Shown: positions 28,791 to 63,352 of the stretch, piece by piece
Position numbering within the stretch: position 1 is the stretch's first letter
How the letters are laid out: every line of letters starts with the position of its first letter
Assembly (NCBI GenBank): GCA_022592445.1
Contig: JABYQR010000076.1
Coordinates: 83,447-147,446, forward strand
Direction: 5' to 3'
Origin: Cytidiella melzeri
Taxonomy: Eukaryota > Basidiomycota > Agaricomycetes > Polyporales > Irpicaceae
Length of the DNA stretch: 64,000 nt
Translations under genes and position numbers: made by a program
The notes under the pieces: model-generated
Databases searched by the model: none
Seen by the model: only the letters and a program-made list of their open reading frames with translations
What the model was told of the DNA's origin: nothing

Positions 28791-28985
28791 AGGCGTGGTC
28801 AATTCTTAGGTGGTTCGTCAGGTCGCTGGTTCGTCGAGTTCGTCGCCACCATTGGTGGCGTTTCCTGGGGCATGCCGGGCATGCCGAGAATCAGCAGAGA
28901 TCTCGGACGTGCGCCCTCTCCACTGGCCATCCCACCGTTATGCCAAAAGTGTATTGGCTGTCGGGAGTGTCATCAGTATACTACA
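28791..28985. repeat. Harbinger left terminal inverted repeat (~190 bp)
   Basis: It matches the reverse complement of about 33590-33781. The first 60 bases are identical and only scattered mismatches occur over about 170 bases, fading near the inner end. A direct pair of GGCATGCC/GGGCATGCC words lies inside. Confidence 0.88.
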
Positions 28986-29190
28986 GCACAAATATTAAGT
29001 AGTGTACTGTACTTAAATCTATAAAATACATTGTAGTCGGATTATGCACACTTGCGCGCACCTCCCGCTCTAGACGCCTAGGATTTCCCACGAGAGCCGA
29101 TGCAGACGCGACTTGCACGGTTTTTTCGTTCTATCTATTCACACTATTCTCTACGACTTACTCAAGAGAGTTGGACTGGGATGTCCAGCT

Positions 29191-31222
29191 ATGGCTGGGG
29201 TGCAGTGGGGTAAGTCTTTGCCACTTGTCAGTTTCTACTTTTTTGCTGATTTATTCCAGGCCTTGGGAGCAGAATCCCGAATATACCTGCAGGAGGGCTG
29301 TTGGAATACCTTCAGGATAACTCAGTGGGCACGGATTTGAATGCATCTGAGGTAAAGTGCTCATGCAGATGAGTCAAGCAGCAGACTTACCCAATTATCA
29401 GGATAACCGTACTGTTTTCCCTTCGCCCGATACACACCGCGCACAACGAGAACACGACACCGCGCGCAGAGCCATGGTTGGCACTGTCGGATCGGCCAAG
29501 GAGGGGGTCACTGCGGAGCCTCTTGGAGCTCGTGAAGGCCACTCGGAATGTCAGTACCTTGCTCTACGCAACGACGCGGTACGTATCACAAATCATATGC
29601 GGCCGAGCCTTGAGTTGTTTGCTTACATGCTATTCAGCACCAGCGGGGCGGCTCGTACATGGCCATCCAGCGCCGTGAGGCCGCGCAACTTGGTGCTGAG
29701 GTGGACTCTCCTCCAGCTGTCGCTCCTTGCATTGCCTACAACACCGGCCTTGCCCTCAACACTCACGTCGACGCGAACGCTCGGGCTGACCTCGGAGACG
29801 AAGATGATCTGTCTCCCGTGCAGTTCGCTGACGATAATCTGCTGCAAGTTGATGAAAACTCACTCTCTAATCTGCCTGTGCCGGCCGCATTCACTCCGCT
29901 GCTGCCTGAGCTATGCCACTCGCACAACGCTCAGAACCACACCTCCCGCAGGGCTCACGCAGGTTCACTCGAGCTGCATCCCTCCGACCACCGCATGACA
30001 AAACGAGCTCGCCGTGCTGGCCCTGCTCATGGAACAGACACTCATCCGCACTCCACTCCGCCGCAGCCCGTGCCCACGCCGGTTCAGAAGAAGGGTTCGC
30101 TCGCAACGTCCCGAAAACTGACTAAACCAGCATCAGGCCTGACCAAAGCTGATGCCAAGAAGGAGGTTGATGAGAACCATGACCGTGTTGCTTGCAGTTG
30201 GCCAGAGGACGAAATCAGCAAGTTGCTACACGAGTTACTTGACCCTGACGGTGTCGTGGGCGCAACTCTCAAAGCTGATCAGCAGCCAAGCAATTATCAC
30301 TTTAAGAAGGTGAGGTATCTGTTCTCTTGCTCAATGTCATATGAGGTAACATTGGTGTATAGCTTGCAGCGTCACTGTGGAAAGGTGTCCGCAATGACCA
30401 ATCGTTGAAGAGTAAGTATGTGCGCATGAGGGCGGAGTTTTCGCAGATCATACAGCTGGAGTCGTTCACGGGTGGTGGCGGAGATGCTGATACTGTCGAC
30501 TATGGTAATGAGGGTGCAGTCGATGCCCGGCTGAAGTCTGCAGCCAAGGCTGGAAAAGAGGTCGGTACACTGACGGGAAAGAGGTATCTCGAGTGGAAGA
30601 ACAATGGGTGGTATGAGTTGTTCAACAATAGGTGCGTATTTTGTTCCACAGTTGACTTATGCTGAGCTGAGGCTTGTTTAGACCTGGAAGCCATGGCGGC
30701 TTGGTCCGCAGGCATGCTTTTCGCTCGGGTGCTCTGAGTGATCGCGAAGACCTTAGTCTCGGGAGTCCTGGCAGTGACGGAGACAATGACAGTGAGTAGG
30801 AGCACTTGGAGAGAAATAACAGCCATACTAATAATACCTAAGACTCTGACGTGGAGATTGTCTCAAAGCCAGCTTTGACTCTTTGCAACTCTGCTCAGGG
30901 GTTGAAGACGTCAGCGCCACTTCACCGCCAGCCCGGTGTGCCGATACCAGCTCATGTGCCTCGCACACCAAAGACCAAAGCCACATCATCAATGGACACC
31001 TTCTTCGAGACAAGTGCTGCAGCAATGACTCACCACACTGCCAATGAGGATCGAAAGCTCGAGCTTGGAAGACGCAAAATTGAGCATGACATCAAGAAGG
31101 ACAACTTTGCCATGGCAGAGCGGAAGGTTGCGCAGGCGCGAGAATTTCTCAGTGATCCAAATACTGATGAAGTTATCAAAGCCCAAGCACGCAAAGCTAT
31201 CCAAGAGTTCTTCAACATGTGA
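29191..31222 (+). CDS. Harbinger SANT/Myb-like DNA-binding protein
   Basis: Accessory protein that in this superfamily binds transposon ends and brings the transposase into the nucleus. The seven-exon model is 29191-29209, 29260-29351, 29402-29578, 29638-30309, 30363-30631, 30682-30791 and 30843-31222, with consensus splice sites and matching phases, giving 572 residues. The N-terminal 280 residues are of low order, with basic stretches such as MTKRARRAG. The core follows, with SWPEDEISKLLHELLDP (Trp-rich helix) and KKLAASLWKGVRN, the pattern of Myb/SANT-like domains in transposons, and KRYLEWKNNGWYELFNN. The C-terminal helix is charged (KLELGRRKIEHDIKKDNF). No in-frame stop breaks it. The first exon is the least sure part. 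Confidence 0.75.
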
Positions 31223-31442
31223 ATTTGAGGCTTTCTCTCTAGTTGGTGATAATTATACCCAAATTGGTTTTCATTCATTTTGCCCTTACACATCACTTTC
31301 ATTTGAGCACCTTTGCAAACCATTTCCACAGTCGTTACTTGTTACTCTAATGTCAGGATTCTAATCACATATATAAGTAATCTATTTCCACAGTCATTAC
31401 TTGTTTCTCCGTTGTTAGGAATCTTATCACATATATTTTAAT

Positions 31443-32995
31443 CTATGCAGGAAATAATCTATCTAGCATCTCATTACGAAACGCAAGGCCTTCAAGACGT
31501 AATCTGGTACTGTTCTCTCCATCAGGAATATTAGGCTCTTCATCTCCCACCAAGTTTCCCCCATAAGCTGGCAACACCTGACCTTCTTCTGGTAAGTCAT
31601 CAGGAGAGTAGTCTCCAATGACTTCTGGATGATCTCCAATGTCAATGCATATATTGTGAATGATCATCAATGCTTCGATAACTCGGTAAACATCGTCAAT
31701 GTTTTGTGGTGTTGACAGCAGCTTTAGTGCTGGAAATCGGCCCTTGAGCATACCAAATGCATGTTCCACATATATGCGTTTGTTGGATAGGTTCTTGTTG
31801 AATTGTCGTCTACGAACTTTCTCATTTCCACCTGCTTGCTGAATTTCAGGCTCATTAAATGGTCGCAACACAAACGGGCTAGATGGATAGCCTATTTTGG
31901 ACCTTTAATATGCATACAGCAGCCAGCTCAGGAGAGACTGATACTAACCTTTGTCTGCCAGCAGGTATTCACCAGGTTGGAATAAGAGATGTCGCTGCAT
32001 CCAAACATATGATCTCTTCCAGATTGTGACATCTGGTACTGATCCTGGCCAACCACCCTCAAAAGCCATGAACCTTTTCTGGTGGTCTACAATAGCCTGA
32101 ATATTAACCTTGCAACACATTAGGATAGATGTTCAGAATACAAATCAAAAATCATACCGCAGGAAATTTCTTGCGAGATAAATATGACACTCCTTGTTGG
32201 TGTGGCATACTGCTTAGCCGTATTAGGCTTCCATCAACAACACCAATGCATTGATCAAACCCATTTTCACCAAAATGCTCCTTTGACTCTGCATGTCGTG
32301 CATTATCTCCCCATACTAGTGTCTCTGAACCTAACTCTCGAAGTGCTCGGGTTACCCGCCTGAATAGAATAGCTACTGGTGAATAACTTTAAGCTCCTAA
32401 TAGCTGAGTCACATACCGGCAGAATACATGAACAGTACCTTTGCCAAGGCCCATACGGTGTGCTACAGACTGTGCATTGGAACCAAGCTGGCCATACCGC
32501 ATGAGGAAGCAGCCTAGCTGGTAACGGACAGGATGCTGCGGCTTTCTTCCAGATGATTGGAAGAGATTATTTTCCTCTAGACGTCCAACAAGAAAATCAA
32601 AGGTTGTGCGGCTAACACTAGGTTGTTATATATGAGAATCTTTGATAATGGATTTTCAAATGTATGTTTTACCAAAATTCATGACAGAAATCTCTGTCAG
32701 GCCAGGACAGAGCTTTGTTGAAGAAATCATGACATTTTTCAAGCTGGTCGTATTATCCTCGAGGGCCTCTGGCATTCTGCAGGTGGGCAATTGCAAGGAT
32801 GTCTATTCCTAGGCGGCGCAAGAAAGTTGTCACTTCATCTGGAATGTCATCAAGTGTATCATCTGGCACAAGGCTGTCTATAAGTGCCTCAACATCAATG
32901 TCATCCTCGAGTGAGCTTGCAAGAAACTGAAGGTTGGCACTGTGGGCACAGAGAAGAGCTTGAAGTTGAGTTCGAGAGATAGTATGAGAACTCAT
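31443..32995 (-). pseudogene. Harbinger (HARBI1-like) DDE transposase with one in-frame stop
   Basis: Nuclease of the DDE_Tnp_4 family. Minus-strand exons are 32995-32673, 32617-32417, 32359-32158, 32108-31949 and 31891-31443, giving 445 codons. The N-terminal part holds RTTFDFLVGRLE and a helix-turn-helix-like region (NAQSVAHRMGLGKGTVHVFCR). Catalytic acids lie in GVVDGSLIRL, in YLLADKGYP and in NKRIYVEHAFG, and WPGSVPDVTIW is the usual block between the first two. A TAA at 32753-32755 (codon 81) interrupts exon 1 with no splice site near enough to skip it. The glutamine codon CAA is the simplest ancestor. All else is intact, so inactivation looks recent, or the protein may be made from a downstream start lacking its N-terminus. 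Confidence 0.85.
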
Positions 32996-33589
32996 AGCAG
33001 CAAGGGAAGTTGAAGACTGCTAGTAATGACAACTTGAGAGGATGTGTTCACTTGAACAGGGATGTTAACTGTAAGGACCAGAGGAGTTGGAAACAGGGGT
33101 GAAAGGGCTATATGGCAACAAGGCAGTGTCCATGTGGTAAAACAAAAGATGTGACTATAAACAAAGGGGTCATGAGAGACAAGAAAAGCTTTCAATAGGG
33201 GTAAAGTTCATGAGTAGGGCCGCAAAAGTCTATTACACCTACTTTAGACCTAAAAATACTCGGTTGGCTCTTGAGTTTAGAGTTCAAGAAATTACATTAG
33301 TGGCTGCATTCATCCTAAGTGGGCTGATACTGGTTCTAACCTACAAAATATGTATGGAAGAAACACTTAGATTTCTCAGCCCTGCTGCTACCCAACTGCA
33401 TTTTTTGGGCCTTAGGTCTAGGGTCATGGCATTAGCTGTAATTTGAACATGACAGTATATGGGAAGCTGTGTTATGGAACAACAAAAAGCCCCTGTGGGA
33501 AATCATGGGCATCTACAGCAGAGAGGAGCACAGAGTGAACAACATTCCTGGATCGTATGCATGGTGCTACAGTACAATAGTCAACTTTG
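32996..33589. other. Non-coding interior of the Harbinger element
   Basis: Upstream region of the transposase gene, between its start and the right inverted repeat. No coding potential or sub-repeats were recognised; it should contain the transposase promoter. Confidence 0.5.
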
Positions 33590-33781
33590 TCTATACTCCT
33601 GAGAGTCCCGACAGACAGTCCACTTTTGGCATAGCGGCGGGATGGCCAGCGGAGAAGGCGCACGTCCGAGATCTCTACTGATTCTCGGCATGCCCGGCAT
33701 GCCCCTGGAAACGCCACCAAAGGTGGCGACGAACTCGACGAACCAGCGACCTGACGAACCACCTAAGAATTGACCACGCCT
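33590..33781. repeat. Harbinger right terminal inverted repeat
   Basis: Inverted partner of 28791-28985, ending GACCACGCCT. Inner bases diverge more than outer ones. Confidence 0.88.
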
Positions 33782-55739: not shown

Positions 55740-55895
55740 TAGTCTCGTTCCCAGACGTTATGGGACACGACCTCGCTACGCTCGGGGACGAGACAAAAGA
55801 CGACTCGCCGACGCTCGTACCTAAAATAGAAATCTTTCCATTTTTGGACACTGTTTGATGCGAAAGCGTTTTTTTGTGAAAGACCATGATCCGTG
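55740..55895. mobile_element. Solo terminal fragment related to the RecQ/DUF6589 element
   Basis: About 155 bp that closely match the left end of the adjoining element (55915 onward), including TAGTCTCGTTCCCAGAC, the hairpin arms and TTGGACACTGTTTGATGCGA. The two copies are 175 bp apart. The match stops before the 9-bp target duplication. It could be the stump of an older insertion next to which the present element landed. Confidence 0.75.
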
Positions 55896-55905
55896 CGTGT
55901 TTGCG

Positions 55906-55914
55906 AGTGTACCA
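55906..55914. repeat. 9-bp target-site duplication, left
   Basis: AGTGTACCA immediately before the element, repeated exactly at 63344-63352. Confidence 0.88.
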
Positions 55915-55931
55915 TAGTCTCGTTCCCAGAC
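55915..55931. repeat. Left terminal inverted repeat (17 bp)
   Basis: TAGTCTCGTTCCCAGAC, exact complement of the right end. Bases 55917-55927 can also pair with 55959-55969 (GGGGACGAGAC) to form a terminal hairpin with an 11-bp stem including one G-T pair. Confidence 0.88.
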
Positions 55932-56077
55932 GTTATGCCACACGACCTCGCTACGCTCGGGGACGAGACAAAAGACAACTCGCTGGCGCTCGTACCTAAA
56001 ATAGAATTACTTCCGCTTTTGGACACTGTTTGATGCGAAACCGATTTTGTGTGAAAGACCATGATTCGTGTGAGCAT

Positions 56078-56126
56078 AACGTCTGGTCCATTTCGCCCTT
56101 GTGGGTGTAGATGACCCTGTCACGTG
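56078..56126. repeat. Left subterminal inverted repeat (49 bp)
   Basis: Begins AACGTCTGGTCC and ends GACCCTGTCACGTG. It matches the complement of 63162-63210 at 46 of 49 positions. Confidence 0.9.
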
Positions 56127-56146
56127 CGCTTGATCTATGTGCGTCT

Positions 56147-56170
56147 GTGCTATCTTTCCGTTGATAGCAC
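56147..56170. other. Small hairpin, GTGCTATC/GATAGCAC
   Basis: Perfect 8-bp stem with an 8-base loop, about 100 bp before the helicase start. It shares the word ATAGCAC with the large hairpin at 62936-63000 near the other end. Confidence 0.6.
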
Positions 56171-56273
56171 GCGTCGGGCGTCGCCTCATCCCGCTTGTCT
56201 TATTTTATTGCCTGCCCCTCGTCCCCCTCGTCCCCCTCGTCCATCAATATTCTTATTTATACTCTCATAAATT

Positions 56274-59200
56274 ATGGAATCCGACGACGAATATGACGGT
56301 TTTTTTTCGCCCCTTCCGGACGTGGCATTCCTTAATGACCACAGCAATTCTACAATTGCTCGACCGCTGCCTCCGGTACCTGAATCCGCAACCACGCCTC
56401 GCAGGAGCAGCCTGCAGGCAGCTGTAAGTGACGAGTCAGATGAGGCTATACTGCAGAGAACACAACCAAATGCCCCCCCAACCAAGCTTCATGCACGAAG
56501 TTACCAAAACCTCGAGCAAGCACGCGACCGCGCAACCAAGGATCGCGATCACAAATACTCGTCGTCCGCTACACGAGAGACCATGAGGCTTCAGATACGG
56601 GAGCGCTGCGGCGGAAAGACACCGAAATGGTTTCAGGTTGACCCTGCAGAGGCATTCCTCGTCGGTATGGATGTAATTCTTGTCTCCGCAACTGGCTCGG
56701 GCAAGACGCTCGCGTTTTTGCAAAGTCTGCTTGCAGACGAGACGAATAAGTCGCAGTTGATTATCATCTCACCTTTGAACGAGCTTGAGTATGATATGGT
56801 GAGTTCATGCTCTTACTCTCACGCCAATAGGCTAATTGTATGCACCTTCACACGCGTTATTGCAGGTTGATCGCTGCAATACAATGGGTCTCCCCGCGCT
56901 CGCCATCAATGGAGACAAATGGGCGCAGGACAAGACATTACAAAAGGTGTGTATATTACTCCTCTGGCATGCTATTCAAACTGAGACTGCGAGTTTACCC
57001 ATAGAAACTTCAGGATCGCCAGTTCCGAGTACTCCTTACCTCGCCAGAGATGATCTTCGGCCACCCTGTGTTCTCCAAAATGATGCGAGACGCAGAATGG
57101 ACGAAGAACATCCTCGGAACCGTCATCGACGAGGCGCACTGTGTTCTTGAATGGAAAGAAAGCTTTCGGACCTCCTTCGGATTATTTCACAAAGCGTGGG
57201 TGTACCTTCCAGGAAAGCCGATATTTGCTGCATCTGCCACACTCACACCATCCATGATTGACTCTCTCGCCGACACCCTTTCCTTCGCATGCAGCAACTC
57301 ATTCATCTTGAACGTCGGTAACAACCGTTCCAATCTCACCACAGTTGTCTGCCGCATGGTAGGCGGCGAAAAGGACTTTGCGGCGCTAGATTTCCTTGTG
57401 GACGAAGTCGCCGAAGGCAAGCCATTGGTACGCACTATGGTATTTTTGAATTCGCGCGATACTGCACGCCGTGCATGCAACTACGTCAAGAGCAAGTTAC
57501 CCGAAGATTCCCCGTATCAAGAGCAAATCTTCGCGATGTGGGCTACCAAAAGCGCCAGGGCAAAGCGCAAGATCATGAAACAATTTCGCACAGGCAAGAT
57601 TATCATTTTGTTTGCGACCGAAGTCGCTGGCATGGTAAGCACACATGCAATTTGCATCAGACGTGTTATTGACTACCAATAAGGGCATTGATCTAGGCGA
57701 CATACAGCGCATCGTTCAGTATCTAATTCCTCAGAAGCTTACCCAGTTCACTCAGTGAGGGGGCAGAGCTGGAAGGGACAACACTCCGGCATTGGTTATA
57801 CTATTAGTTGAACCCTCCGTCTTCAAGAAAGTGCACAAGCGCAAGGCCTCTTACACCACGGGCAAGATCCAGCATTCAGATTCCACGGCACCAGAACAAC
57901 ACGCAGATGTTCCGATGGAACAAATCGCAGATGAGGCACAGGAACAAATCGGAGATGAGGCACAGGAACAACACATTCATTGCATCTTGCCACAGGACGT
58001 GGACAACCTCATGGACGAAGACCTCCACGCAGAGCACGATGGACAGTACACAGGTGAGGATCAGCATATGGAGGAGCCAGGTGATGATGTACACGAGCAT
58101 GAGGTAGGACACGAAGGGGAAGACAGGGACAACGAAGCCAACGAGCTAAGTGATGACGAGCACAACGAGAGCAAGGACGACGATGAGGACGGAGATGAAG
58201 AGGACGAGGGTGAGGACGGAGATGAAGATGAAGACGAGAACGAGGGCACAAACGAGGGAGATGAAGAGGGTGAGGGTGAGGATGAGGGAGATGATGAGGC
58301 CAGGTGTGTCGAGGATAGCGAAGAGAACGGAAACACGCGCAAGTTGTATGAAGACAATAGCGACTTCGAGTATCGCAAGAACATTGAGGAAAGCATGAGG
58401 GTTATTGCAGCTACTCACGGCTGTCGAAGGGATATTGCGGATGCATACTACGACAACCCAGAGCGCACAAATGGTAAGCACCTCTCTCAGAATCTTCTTG
58501 CACTTATATTTTTGTGTGCACACAGATGTGCCGACGACATGCTGCGACAACTGTGTTCGCAAACGCAAGGCCACAGGCGATGCCATCTTGTCTGACTACG
58601 AGGAGAACCTTCTTGTATTGGTCGCCCGTATAGAGTCTCGCCCTCCACCTCCCCCTGAGCCCACGTACTCTAACGAAGCCACACGCCAATGGAACAAACG
58701 ACGCAAGCACATCTATGACGATCTTGTGGAATGGCGTCAGGAGATTTGGACGAACGAACATAAACCCGCGCGGTATTCTCCCGACTCCCTGATCACCAAC
58801 CGCATGCTCAAGACTCTCGCAATATACGCCCGTATCAAGACCATGGAAGACCTCAAGATTGCTCTCTCTGACTGGGTCTGGGCTGACGAACTGGGGCTAC
58901 GGGTACTAGCTAGAATTGACGACTGTGACTCTCTGTGGCTGGCCAACCGCGAGCGGGAAAAGGCAGAGAAAAAGCAAAAACGCACTCTTGAAACTGCAAA
59001 AAGACGAGCTGAAGAAGACATAGCGCAAGCCGCTGCGCGTGAAGCAAGACGTCTGGCAAGGGAGCGCGAGAAATTCGAGAGAGAGCTGGAAGAAGCTCTC
59101 GAGGATTCGGTAATGTACACCTATGGCACAATTCTGACGTACAACCCAGACACGGACAGCCATGAATGTGGAGACGACAGCTTACAGCTTGAAGAGCTGG

Positions 59201-59787
59201 ACTCAATTACTGGTGCATCTACGAGCTACTACACGGAAAGTGCACTCGTCAACGCGCTGCAAGCCGACCCTCTCTCTCCTGGCTACCAAGAGCTGGTACA
59301 ACTAGATACTGCCTCGTCTCTCCCTCTGACCTGCTACCCTCGGTGCTCTACTATGCTGAAAGGCGAAAACGCTAAAAAGAAGACGATAGCCTCACGGCAA
59401 CCTGGAGCAACAGCAGTGCGCGCAAAAGCTGGATCTGCGGTAGATGCGAAGAAAAAAGCAAAGCGTCTGGCTGGCACACTATGTGCGAACAATGGCGAAC
59501 CAGCAAGTACATTGCCTTCAGCTAGTATTCCCGCTTGTGCCCCGTTGCTTCCGGCTTGTGCCCCGTCGCAATTGCCCATGCCGCGCCCAAAGCCTCGACC
59601 TGTGCCGCGCTGCATAACTTTCAAGCCGGTGTACATACCTGCGCAGGACAATCCTGCACCACAGATCCCTCCGACTGCAGGTCCGTCAACCTCTCTGAAT
59701 GTGGTTTTTGAAGCCCCCGTCGTATCGTCTCACAACGCAGCCGATGAGGCCCCCTCGCGTCTGTTCAAACGATTCAAGTTTATGTAG
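56274..59787 (+). pseudogene. RecQ-like superfamily 2 helicase with acidic insert, one in-frame stop
   Basis: ATP-driven DNA helicase. Exons are 56274-56798, 56866-56946, 57014-57634, 57684-58473 and 58526-59787, giving 1,093 codons. Motifs are Walker A SATGSGKT (138-145), LTSPEM, DEAH (241-244), SATLTPS, then LFATEVAGMGIDLGDIQRIVQYLIP and GRAGRD. Right before GRAGRD a TGA (57756-57758) stands where the family has the arginine of motif VI (QRGGRAGRD), so CGA was the likely codon. About 120 acidic residues with repeats of EQIxDEAQ split the helicase from the RecQ zinc module, CRRDIADAYY...CCDNC. The C-terminal 380 residues have a coiled coil (EREKAEKKQKRTLETAKRR) and a Pro-rich end. No RQC or HRDC domain is seen. 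Confidence 0.87.
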
Positions 59788-59823
59788 TACCAACCTTTGT
59801 ATGTAGTGTACAAAAACTATATG

Positions 59824-62681
59824 CTACTCAACTACCACAACTGTGTCTGCGTCAGCTATTATACGATGGGAGTACTCGTCCTCCAAGTCCTCGGTGAAAT
59901 CTTCCTTGGTAGACTTGCTCGACACCCGCCTCTCTGCCCATCTTTTGATTGAGGCCTGGATCTTCTGCGCGTCACTTCCTATTGCGACGAAGTCCTTGGG
60001 TGTAGAGGGAGCGGTACGCCCAGCTCAATAGACGTGCGCGTTGCCAAAGTTGTACGCCTTTTGAAGATTGGCGATGTCCGTCTCTGACTCAGGAGTGGTG
60101 TGAGCCTTCCCTCAACGGAAGTGGTTGATCTCGGCCTCTACGTGATCCTTGATCTTGTGTTGGATGGGAATTGAGGCCGATATCTTCTTAATATACTCCC
60201 ATGTGGCAAAGGGCCCGTGAACAGCACAGGTGTGCTAGTGTATTACCAATGAGATACATTGCGAGGGACAAATTTTGAGCAACTCACTTTGATATCCCGT
60301 ATGTTATGCTCTTGGAGCATGTCAAACGCCAAGAACTGCCCTGGCCGGCCTGTCGTATTTGCAAGCCAGCAATATTGCATAATGAAGGATCTGTAACAGC
60401 AGATGTAAGCGTAAGACACGTCTCAATCAGAATGAGACGTACCGCAGCTCGGGTGGCCACTCTTTCTGAAGGCCTTGCAAAAGCTCTAGAAGCTCGATGG
60501 CGTAGTTCGAGCTTTTTCCTCCGCTGAACCGAAACAGAAGACGAGGAATCCGTTCTTCTATACAGCCGACATCTCCAGTCTTCATGGCTTTGTCAAACTC
60601 GACATAGTCAAGGAGGTCGCGACAGAATTGAATACTCTGAATGAATACTTTGTCGTGTGCCTCGACCGGCTTGCTCTTCTGTTGGACAAGTGCACCTGTT
60701 GACGCATGGTGCTGCACAATGCGAGTGGCGATGGCTTTGATGCGATAAGGTGGGAGGGCGCGAAGATCCGCAATGGACTTGCACTTTGAGACAATGACCC
60801 ACAGGTCCCAAAAGCGTGCCTCAGCAATATGCCGCAGGCCTTCTTGCATTCCATGATGAAATGCGCCTGAAGTCTGTTAGTAATTATTTATATATGCAGG
60901 TAAATACGAATGACTTGCCTTTGACAGACGTGGTATGGAGACCTTTGCGCTGTAAGATCTCGAATCCATGTTGAAGGCCAAAGAGGGGCATGTCCTTATA
61001 ATATTGCTTGTGGAACGAAGTCTCCTCGGCAAGTTGAGTGTGAAACCATCCGAATATTTTGACAAATTGCTCGAAGCGATCGAGGAAATTGTCGTCCTCG
61101 CTGCGGTCCTTCTTGATTGAGCGTATATGGACGGTTGTTAGTTGATCGCCAATCCAGACCAACAGGTGCTTGAAGGTTGGGTGGTTGCGAAGCGTTTTGA
61201 GGGGACTGTCGAATTTCAATTGGCGCATCCATTCGTCCATACACTTCCGCGTGCCCTCTTGGGACGCGGACTCGAGGTGAACGGTGTCTAGGAGGTATTG
61301 GCAGACAGCGTGTTCTTTGCCAGTGGGAAGCTGCTGACGAGGGGGGAGGGGGGAAAAGATGGGATCGTGCTTGTACTCATAGGTGTTGAAGTCGAAGGAA
61401 GGTGTATTGATGAGAAACTGGATGACACGGGAGATGGCTTGCGCTTCGAGACGAGGACTTGCAGCGCGTTAAAGTTTGAGGATATCCAATGCGGTGATGA
61501 GATTGTGGGACTTTGCGACAGCTGCACGTTGCGCCTGGTACTGCAGACGGTCGGGCCAAACCACGGCAGGATCCTTGATCACAAAAATAGTCCCAGCTGT
61601 GCCGCTATCGAAGTGCGATTGCTTGTTCCGACGTTGCTTGTAGACCTGGAAGGCGAGATTCAGGTTGTCTTGAGAAGCGAACCATGCCCAGAGGGAGATG
61701 TCCGCAAACAGAGCCTGTCGCGCATCCTCGGAGAGCTTCTTGACGAGGTCGTAAACCCAGGAATGGCTCATGGTCACACCGTACGCGTGTGTGGTGTCAT
61801 GAGCCTTTGCTGCAAGGCCACTCGCCTTGAAGTATATGCTGTTGAACTGCTGCAGAAGGCAGCGTCGCTGCGAGCGACCGTAAGCACAAATACTGACCAT
61901 CATAACAATGGGCTACGTGGATGGTGTGAGACCGTGAAACATTGTGAGATAACTGGAGACTTACCTCGGTATGGTCTTTGTATGTGTTGCGCTCCAGCTG
62001 TTGTGGCGTTGACGACGCGTTGTGAAGGATGCTCCAAAGGACGGGAGCCTTTGCTTTCATTGTGGTGCTGAGCTTCTGCAGGTCGAGCTCGAGAAGGTTT
62101 TCTGCCGTGAGGTTCTTGATTGGTGCACGCACAATGGGAGCGAGCTCGCGCATCTCCCGATTGATGAGCATATTCACGTTATCGATAGAGAACTTGTCAA
62201 GCGGCCTCCGGGCACCCAGGGAGCGGAATCCTTTGATGTGGCCACGATCTCGCCCGTTCCTCCACTTCCGGACCAGTTGGGGGAAGTCCAAAGAGCCAAG
62301 GAACCCGGCTCTACAGTACCTGGATAGAATGTCATAGGTGTGTCTAGTGCGCACGGAATTTACTCACTTTATAACCCCCGTATCTGCCTCGCTGTCTTGA
62401 AGGATGGTGACATAGTATGTCATGTTTGCAAGGTCGAGATTGACCTTGCGCATCTCCGTGATGATATGTTCGATTCGCTGCACAACGACGCCAAGGGGAA
62501 GCACAGCTAAAGTGGCCCTGCATTTGTCGGTGCGGCCGTACGGACCCCCTCGGTGTGGTAGTTGGTCGTCCTCTTCAAACATGTCATTGTCGAAGTCAAA
62601 GTCGGCGCATTCATCGGGATGCACCTTGTTGTCGCCGGGGTCGAGGTCCTCCTGGTCGCGGGGAACACGAGAGCGTGGCAT
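59824..62681 (-). pseudogene. DUF6589-family protein, three in-frame stops
   Basis: Member of a large basidiomycete family, probably the transposase-like partner here. Minus-strand exons are 62681-62368, 62319-61965, 61912-60919, 60866-60443, 60390-60288 and 60234-59824, giving 867 codons. The third intron is GC-AG (GCAAGT...TTCAG). Family blocks are RSLGARRPLDKFSIDNVN, WFASQDNLNLAFQV, VWIGDQLTTVHIRSI, FVKIFGWFHTQLA, HKQYYKDMPLFGLQHGFE, AFHHGMQEGLRHIAEARFWD, RFSGGKSSNYAIELLELLQG and MLQEHNIRDIK. Acid residues in SQDN and GDQ could belong to an RNase H-like fold, but that is inference. Stops are TAA at 61469-61471 and TGA at 60112-60114 and 60025-60027. The N-terminus is acidic. Its stop is 36 bp from the helicase stop. 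Confidence 0.85.
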
Positions 62682-62789
62682 CGCTCTGTTGCTGTGAAAA
62701 AGATGCTGAACTCACCAGTATTAATACCCCTAGACCCTGTTTGCGCTCGAGCATCCCCTGGTAGTGTGACTTGCGAGCGAAGATTTGCC

Positions 62790-62812
62790 GGTACTGTCAT
62801 TTGACAGTAACC
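62790..62812. other. Imperfect palindrome, ACTGTCA/TGACAGT
   Basis: Inverted word in the upstream region of the DUF6589 gene, about 110 bp from its ATG. It is nearly the same as the centre of the hairpin at 62936-63000, so the pair may be binding sites for one factor. Confidence 0.7.
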
Positions 62813-62935
62813 CGGAGAGCTTGGATATCTAGTCGGATGTTCTGCGGTAGGTAGTAGACGGGGGCCGCGACTGTGGCTCGAGTGGACCGGGAGGAGAGAG
62901 ATGAGAGACGGTGCGCGGTCAAGTGCTCGTTGGTA

Positions 62936-63000
62936 GTGTATAGCACAAAGGTACAAGGTACTGTCAAATGACAGTACCAAGCAATCTTTGTGCTATACAC
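62936..63000. other. 65-base nested hairpin upstream of the DUF6589 gene
   Basis: The outer arms GTGTATAGCACAAAG and CTTTGTGCTATACAC are perfect complements (15 bp). Between them lies a second palindrome (62957-62978) with arms GGTACTGTCA and TGACAGTACC. It can form a cruciform or serve as a strong dyad operator, about 255 bp upstream of the gene and 340 bp from the element end. Confidence 0.88.
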
Positions 63001-63161
63001 GCGAAGGTTCTTTGGTGTATGTGACGGGACTTGTGAGAGGAGGATGAAGGGGAGAAGAGAGAGACAAGAGTTTGTCGGTGCTAAGAGGGAGAAGCCAACA
63101 CATCAAGGTAACAGATTCGAGTTCTCACCGTTATCTTATCGCAAACGCCCATAGATTTTGA

Positions 63162-63210
63162 CACGTGACAGGGTCATCTACACCCGGAAGGGCGAAACGG
63201 ACCAGACGTT
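63162..63210. repeat. Right subterminal inverted repeat (49 bp)
   Basis: Inverted partner of 56078-56126, starting CACGTGACAGGGTC. Confidence 0.9.
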
Positions 63211-63326
63211 CGAACACTCACTCAAATGACATTTTGCTCGATCACGCTTTTATATCCAACTTCGTCCCAATCAGGAAGGATTTCCGTTTCTGGCAGGAGC
63301 GATAGCGACTGTCTCCCCGTTCGAAT

Positions 63327-63343
63327 GTCTGGGAACGAGACTA
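63327..63343. repeat. Right terminal inverted repeat (17 bp)
   Basis: GTCTGGGAACGAGACTA, exact complement of 55915-55931. Confidence 0.88.
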
Positions 63344-63352
63344 AGTGTACCA
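63344..63352. repeat. 9-bp target-site duplication, right
   Basis: AGTGTACCA, identical to 55906-55914. Confidence 0.88.

What the first reader, a model, noticed from the sequence alone, without database searches (positions are those of the whole stretch)
55915..63343. A bounded mobile element that pairs a RecQ-like helicase with a DUF6589 protein
Two large genes of different families sit tail to tail, 36 bp apart, inside one unit whose ends are proven by 17-bp inverted repeats and perfect 9-bp target duplications. Both protein families are scattered and abundant in mushrooms but are usually filed as hypothetical. This window suggests that they move together: DUF6589 as the likely transposase and the helicase as a strand-opening partner, a division of labour loosely like Helitron or Zisupton-type systems. 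I know of no named superfamily with this pair. The roles are inference; the unit itself is seen.
Basis: partly seen in the sequence, partly recalled or inferred. Interest (0 to 1): 0.88.

Follow-up and report, generated by a model that had tools for sequence, protein, structure and literature searches.

The report
Jumping gene with transposase and helicase
A stretch of mushroom DNA is a decayed jumping gene whose mover enzyme, so far filed as a protein of unknown function, is steadily paired with a DNA-unwinding enzyme; it most likely belongs to a transposon group already named AcademH.

Summary
Window 55915-63343 is a transposable element with 20-bp terminal inverted repeats (19/20) and a perfect 9-bp target duplication. 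A second copy (contig C127, 98% identical) starts and stops at the same two points between unrelated flanks and has its own perfect 9-bp duplication. The pairing is general: in this 49.7-Mb genome (Cytidiella melzeri) 57 of 82 DUF6589 loci have a RecQ-like hit within 8 kb, 56 of them tail to tail (2.6 expected under uniform placement), and the two proteins diverge together. AlphaFold models of two DUF6589 subfamilies (18% identical) both match DDE transposases best (Hermes, P element), so DUF6589 is very probably the transposase. KolobokH, the other RecQ-bearing group, fails on its TTAA target. The window copy is a relic: both genes carry in-frame stops. In 8 of 12 scorable copies the core lies inverted between the two ends. 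Ordinary as a kind; useful because it gives DUF6589 a function.

The parts
55906..55914 (.). left copy of the 9-bp target site duplication AGTGTACCA
63344..63352 (.). right copy of the 9-bp target site duplication AGTGTACCA
55915..55934 (+). left terminal inverted repeat
   Evidence: end confirmed by copy C127
63324..63343 (-). right terminal inverted repeat (19 of 20 positions match the left one)
   Evidence: end confirmed by copy C127
55915..56077 (+). outer end A, specific to one end of the element
   Evidence: repeated at other places in the genome
63211..63343 (+). outer end B, specific to the other end of the element
   Evidence: repeated at other places in the genome
56078..56147 (+). 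left subterminal inverted repeat; opens with AACGTCTGG, the reverse of the CCAGACGTT in the terminus
63142..63210 (-). right subterminal inverted repeat
56274..59787 (+). RecQ-like helicase gene, exons 56274-56798, 56866-56946, 57014-57634, 57684-58473, 58526-59787; one premature in-frame stop in the motif VI region
   Evidence: DEAD and Helicase_C Pfam matches; exon model; homologues
59824..62681 (-). DUF6589 gene, the likely transposase; three in-frame stops in my reading
   Evidence: Pfam PF20231; deposited protein P0010; stops

Best explanation
The unit is a decayed copy of a two-gene DNA transposon with terminal inverted repeats, most likely of the AcademH lineage. The DUF6589 protein is the transposase: an RNase H-like DDD/E recombinase with a Hermes/P-element-like fold that would bind the terminal 20 bp, and probably the reversed CCAGACGTT motif in the subterminal repeat, cut both ends and join them to target DNA with a 9-bp stagger. 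The convergently transcribed RecQ-like helicase is a steady partner that probably opens or remodels DNA at the ends or during repair. SHOWN: the unit and its ends, 9-bp duplications, many relatives, the stable pairing, a transposase-like predicted fold. INFERRED: binding sites, cut-and-paste chemistry, the helicase's task. PROBABLE, NOT PROVEN: membership in AcademH.
Confidence: 0.78

Rival explanations
1. A separate, unnamed transposon superfamily: the same unit and the same roles, but DUF6589 transposases are not Academ transposases; the helicase and the 9-bp duplication arose in parallel.
For: No sequence link to Academ was tested; the third acid differs between subfamilies; DUF6589 appears in no paper of the library searched.
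Against: Helicase type, duplication length and host group all match what is reported for AcademH.
Confidence: 0.14
2. KolobokH: a fungal Kolobok transposon carrying a RecQ helicase.
For: RecQ helicase in a fungal DDD/E transposon (PMC9587614 passages).
Against: Kolobok makes TTAA 4-bp duplications and has RR..YY termini; none of the 10 duplications here is TTAA and the termini are TAG..CTA. In KolobokH the RecQ lies downstream of the transposase domain; here it is convergent in 56 of 57 pairs.
Confidence: 0.02
3. Nested elements: a small outer repeat (ends A and B) into which an independent RecQ/DUF6589 element with its own 49-70-bp inverted repeats had inserted.
For: The core lies in both orientations between A and B, and C106 holds A and B without any core.
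Against: The C180 element carries the outer terminus and the subterminal repeat together at both ends, with a perfect 9-bp duplication; C106 has its own 8-bp duplication and lacks the inner repeat, which fits a deletion derivative; no core with a duplication at 56078/63210 was found.
Confidence: 0.04
4. Two host genes that happen to lie in a repeat-rich region.
For: 33 of 89 RecQ-like loci pair with no DUF6589 locus.
Against: Precise ends in two copies, target duplications, 57 of 82 pairings.
Confidence: 0.01

Closest known systems
AcademH (lineage of Academ DNA transposons; Kojima 2020, Mob DNA 11:15, paper not held; described in passages of PMC10045372 and PMC10799480)
   Same: Helicase with DEAD and Helicase_C domains beside a transposase; 9-10-bp duplications; found in fungi including Basidiomycota.
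   Different: No sequence comparison was possible; AcademH is called low-copy in fungi while dozens of pairs exist here; the DUF6589 link was not found in the library.
KolobokH (passages of PMC9587614)
   Same: Fungal DDD/E transposon with a RecQ helicase.
   Different: TTAA duplications, RR..YY termini, RecQ downstream of the transposase domain rather than on the opposite strand.
Hermes (hAT) and Drosophila P element transposases (structures 4d1q, 6p5a)
   Same: Best fold matches of both DUF6589 subfamily models.
   Different: 6-13% identity in the rows for Hermes and P element; hAT and P make 8-bp duplications and carry no helicase (recalled).
AcademX (passage of PMC10045372)
   Same: The other Academ lineage.
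   Different: 3-4-bp duplications; a nuclease instead of a helicase.

Membership tests
AcademH | encodes a helicase with DEAD and Helicase_C domains | tested here: met
   Pfam PF00270 E 7.3e-10 and PF00271 E 9.4e-06; feature as named in PMC10799480
AcademH | 9- or 10-bp target site duplication | tested here: met
   9 bp in 7 of 10 copies (6 perfect, 1 with one mismatch); 3 of 10 read as 8 bp; feature from PMC10045372
AcademH | DDD/E transposase | tested here: inconclusive
   Predicted fold and two conserved acids fit; third acid unsettled, active-site geometry not measured
AcademH | transposase groups with Academ transposases by sequence | not testable with these tools
   no Academ sequence at hand; paper not held
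AcademH | occurs in fungi, including Basidiomycota | tested here: met
   Cytidiella melzeri, Polyporales; feature from PMC10799480
KolobokH | TTAA 4-bp duplication | tested here: not met
   0 of 10 copies; feature from PMC9587614
KolobokH | termini 5'-RR..YY-3' | tested here: not met
   termini TAG..CTA; feature from PMC9587614
[quoted passage not shown]
   separate genes on opposite strands; convergent in 56 of 57 pairs; feature from PMC9587614
AcademX | 3-4-bp duplication, nuclease | tested here: not met
   8-9-bp duplications; a nuclease was not searched for specifically, Pfam shows helicase and DUF6589 domains
Helitron | no target duplication, no terminal inverted repeats (recalled) | tested here: not met
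   both present
hAT | 8-bp duplication and hAT sequence domains (recalled) | tested here: not met
   9 bp in 7 of 10 copies; Pfam at E up to 1 lists only DUF6589 for P0003 and P0010; the predicted fold is hAT-like
Zisupton / KDZ | KDZ-type transposase domain (recalled) | tested here: inconclusive
   Pfam at E up to 1 lists only DUF6589 for P0003 and P0010; no direct profile comparison made

The most novel reading that the evidence does not exclude
DUF6589 plus RecQ is a transposon superfamily of its own, outside Academ, in which the helicase is a working part of transposition (strand opening or strand switching at the ends). The inversion of the core between the two subterminal repeats, seen in 8 of 12 scorable copies, would then be a by-product of that helicase-driven, possibly replicative step and not of ordinary recombination.
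Probability: 0.12. Interest if true: 0.75.

Novelty: new member of a known kind. Interest (0 to 1): 0.45.

Why it matters
DUF6589 proteins fill the hit lists of two searches with fungal and unnamed metagenome proteins, mostly called hypothetical; showing that they are transposases would let annotators recognise a large set of mobile-element genes for what they are. The steady pairing with RecQ, kept down to about 25% identity, makes a clear question testable: does a transposase need its own helicase, and does the helicase set the length of the target duplication, as has been suggested for AcademH against AcademX (PMC10045372 passage)?

Tried and rejected
Nested-element model: the core flips between ends A and B, and C106 first looked like an empty outer repeat. 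Rejected because C106 (290 bp) has its own 8-bp duplication and lacks the inner repeat, and C180 carries outer terminus and inner repeat together at both ends with a perfect 9-bp duplication.

E677 as third catalytic residue: conserved in 89 of 92 sequences of subfamily 1 but not acidic in subfamily 2 (R, H, Q and others). D651/D586 in a GDxG motif (90 of 92 and 56 of 60) is the better candidate; not settled.

Alternative left end at 55740: the 156-bp stretch 55740-55895 copies end A (91%), but its flank does not repeat at 63344, so 55915 is the end.

Led nowhere: scan of viral contigs (82 pattern matches, none a relative); sequence search of solved structures (6 chance hits); RecQ family model TIGR00614 (only 30 of 184 candidates scored; it mainly separated host RecQ genes); tRNA scan (none); number of inversion events from short trees: the window/C127 lineage sits beside flipped copies in the trees of A (support 0.95) and of the RecQ-side end (0.84), which suggests at least one inversion, but the D tree supports this only at 0.53 and the stretches are short.

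Not found in print: DUF6589 or PF20231 as a transposase (no paper with DUF6589, one unrelated hit for PF20231). The library lacks the AcademH paper, so this says little about the wider literature.

Not done: no empty allele or second strain could be compared; catalytic distances in the models were not measured; the 25 unpaired DUF6589 loci were not inspected one by one.

Full report
What is there. The window lies on contig C706 of a 49.7-Mb genome in 731 contigs. The deposited protein of its DUF6589 gene, P0010, is named for Cytidiella melzeri and sits on a record of 147,446 bases, the length of C706; the species is a wood-inhabiting group member of Polyporales, Irpicaceae (lineage; habit recalled). 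At 55915 and 63343 stand 20-bp inverted repeats (19 of 20), flanked by AGTGTACCA on both sides. The RecQ-like gene runs right from 56274 to 59787 in five exons, the DUF6589 gene runs left from about 62681 to 59824, with 36 bp between their stop codons.

The ends are real. Copy C127 matches 55915..63343 at 98.0% over 7431 columns and stops at both points; its flanks differ and it has its own perfect 9-bp duplication, CTCGTATTG. Ten copies or relatives have both ends in hand: six perfect 9-bp duplications, one 9-bp with a mismatch (C446), three 8-bp (C106 and C111 perfect, C212 with a mismatch). Copies whose second end was disrupted or not in hand (C452, C22, C77, C298, two on C381) were left out of this count.

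The window copy is a relic. The RecQ reading frame has one premature stop, in the motif VI region; the DUF6589 frames show three. C127 is broken too under the same exon model (frame shifts). The two copies differ at 138 sites, 82 of which look like CpG decay (63 on the window side, 19 on the C127 side).

The pairing is general. A search with PF20231 gave 120 matches, merged to 82 loci. RecQ-like hits from four searches merged to 89 loci. 57 of the 82 DUF6589 loci have such a hit within 8 kb, 54 of them within 4 kb; 56 of the 57 are convergent, and uniform placement would give 2.6. The 57 share 56 RecQ loci, since one on C17 is nearest to two DUF6589 loci and gives the single divergent case. 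25 DUF6589 loci and 33 RecQ-like loci stay unpaired; C93:6-1253 lies at a contig end on the side where its partner would be, and C87 and C668 look like host RecQ genes. Loci are not independent; a coarse collapse of look-alike pairs leaves 36 groups. With one query alone the count was 52 of 82.

The two genes diverge together. For the 27 other pairs with both values, RecQ identity and DUF6589 identity to the window's proteins correlate (Spearman 0.79). Pairs with RecQ 36% or more identical have a DUF6589 hit in 27 of 27; those with RecQ 30% or less, or unscored, in 0 of 29. One search scored only 60 of 204 candidates, so the zero reflects rank as well as distance. In Irpex rosettiformis two DUF6589 proteins (P0013, P0029) and two RecQ-like proteins (P0124, P0125) come from records of the same lengths, 536,420 and 358,818 bases; their distance is unknown.

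What it is called. AcademH generates 9- or 10-bp duplications and encodes a helicase, AcademX 3- or 4-bp duplications with a nuclease (passage of PMC10045372). AcademH helicases carry DEAD and Helicase_C domains and AcademH occurs at low copy in Basidiomycota, Ascomycota and Mucoromycota (passages of PMC10799480). The window's element fits on helicase, duplication and host. KolobokH also has RecQ but makes TTAA duplications and has RR..YY termini (passages of PMC9587614) and is excluded. The AcademH paper is not held, so no Academ transposase could be compared. I therefore file the element as a probable AcademH member.

How it most likely works. DUF6589 binds the terminal repeats and perhaps the reversed motif in the subterminal repeat, cuts the element out or copies it, and inserts it with a 9-bp stagger; RecQ opens or remodels DNA ends or repair intermediates (inference from fold, ends and pairing). 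Smaller copies keep the first part of each gene and both ends and lack the middle (C212, C457), and C106 is a 290-bp version with the two outer ends only: these are the non-autonomous derivatives expected of such a transposon.

An unexpected feature. The outer ends A and B differ from one another apart from the terminus, so the orientation of the core between them can be read. In the window, C127 and two copies on C381 the DUF6589 side lies next to B; in C212, C381 (7758-9938), C457, C452, C22, C77, C446 and C298 the core is the other way round. The break lies in the subterminal repeat. Short trees suggest at least one inversion. Ordinary recombination between inverted repeats is enough to explain it; a helicase-linked step is the bolder reading.

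Score. Transposase-helicase transposons are known, so the kind is not new. The function for DUF6589, the genome-wide pairing and the flip of the core are the useful parts.

Noticed in passing
55915-63343 and copies on C127, C212, C381, C457, C452, C22, C77, C446, C298 (loci L031-L080): The core of the element lies in either orientation between the two distinct outer ends (4 copies like the window, 8 inverted); the break falls in the subterminal inverted repeat.
   Followed up: partly
L062/L075 (C106:14679-14968): A 290-bp element made of outer ends A and B only, with an 8-bp duplication: a MITE-like derivative.
   Followed up: yes
55740-55895: A broken second copy of outer end A lies 19 bp before the element (91% over 156 bp), making a false 175-bp tandem repeat.
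   Followed up: yes
28791-33781: Another inverted repeat, 190 bp per arm at 93%, 4.6 kb between the arms, ends AGGCGTGGTC..GACCACGCCT with a possible short TAT duplication: probably a second transposon; content not identified.
   Followed up: no
55915-63343 against L080 (C127): 82 of 138 differences between the two copies are changes of the CpG-decay type, most of them on the window side, as if methylated and silenced.
   Followed up: partly
L055 (C180:34430-35200 and flanks): A related element of about 1 kb has both outer terminus and inner repeat at each end (long, nearly symmetric ends), perhaps the older layout.
   Followed up: partly
protein P0262: A DUF6589 protein of Ganoderma boninense is named 'ATP-dependent RNA helicase CshA' in UniRef; perhaps a name that leaked from a neighbouring or fused helicase.
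   Followed up: no
DUF6589 subfamily 2 (alignment A4): E677 of subfamily 1 is replaced by R, H or Q and others in subfamily 2, so the third catalytic acid must differ or lie elsewhere.
   Followed up: partly
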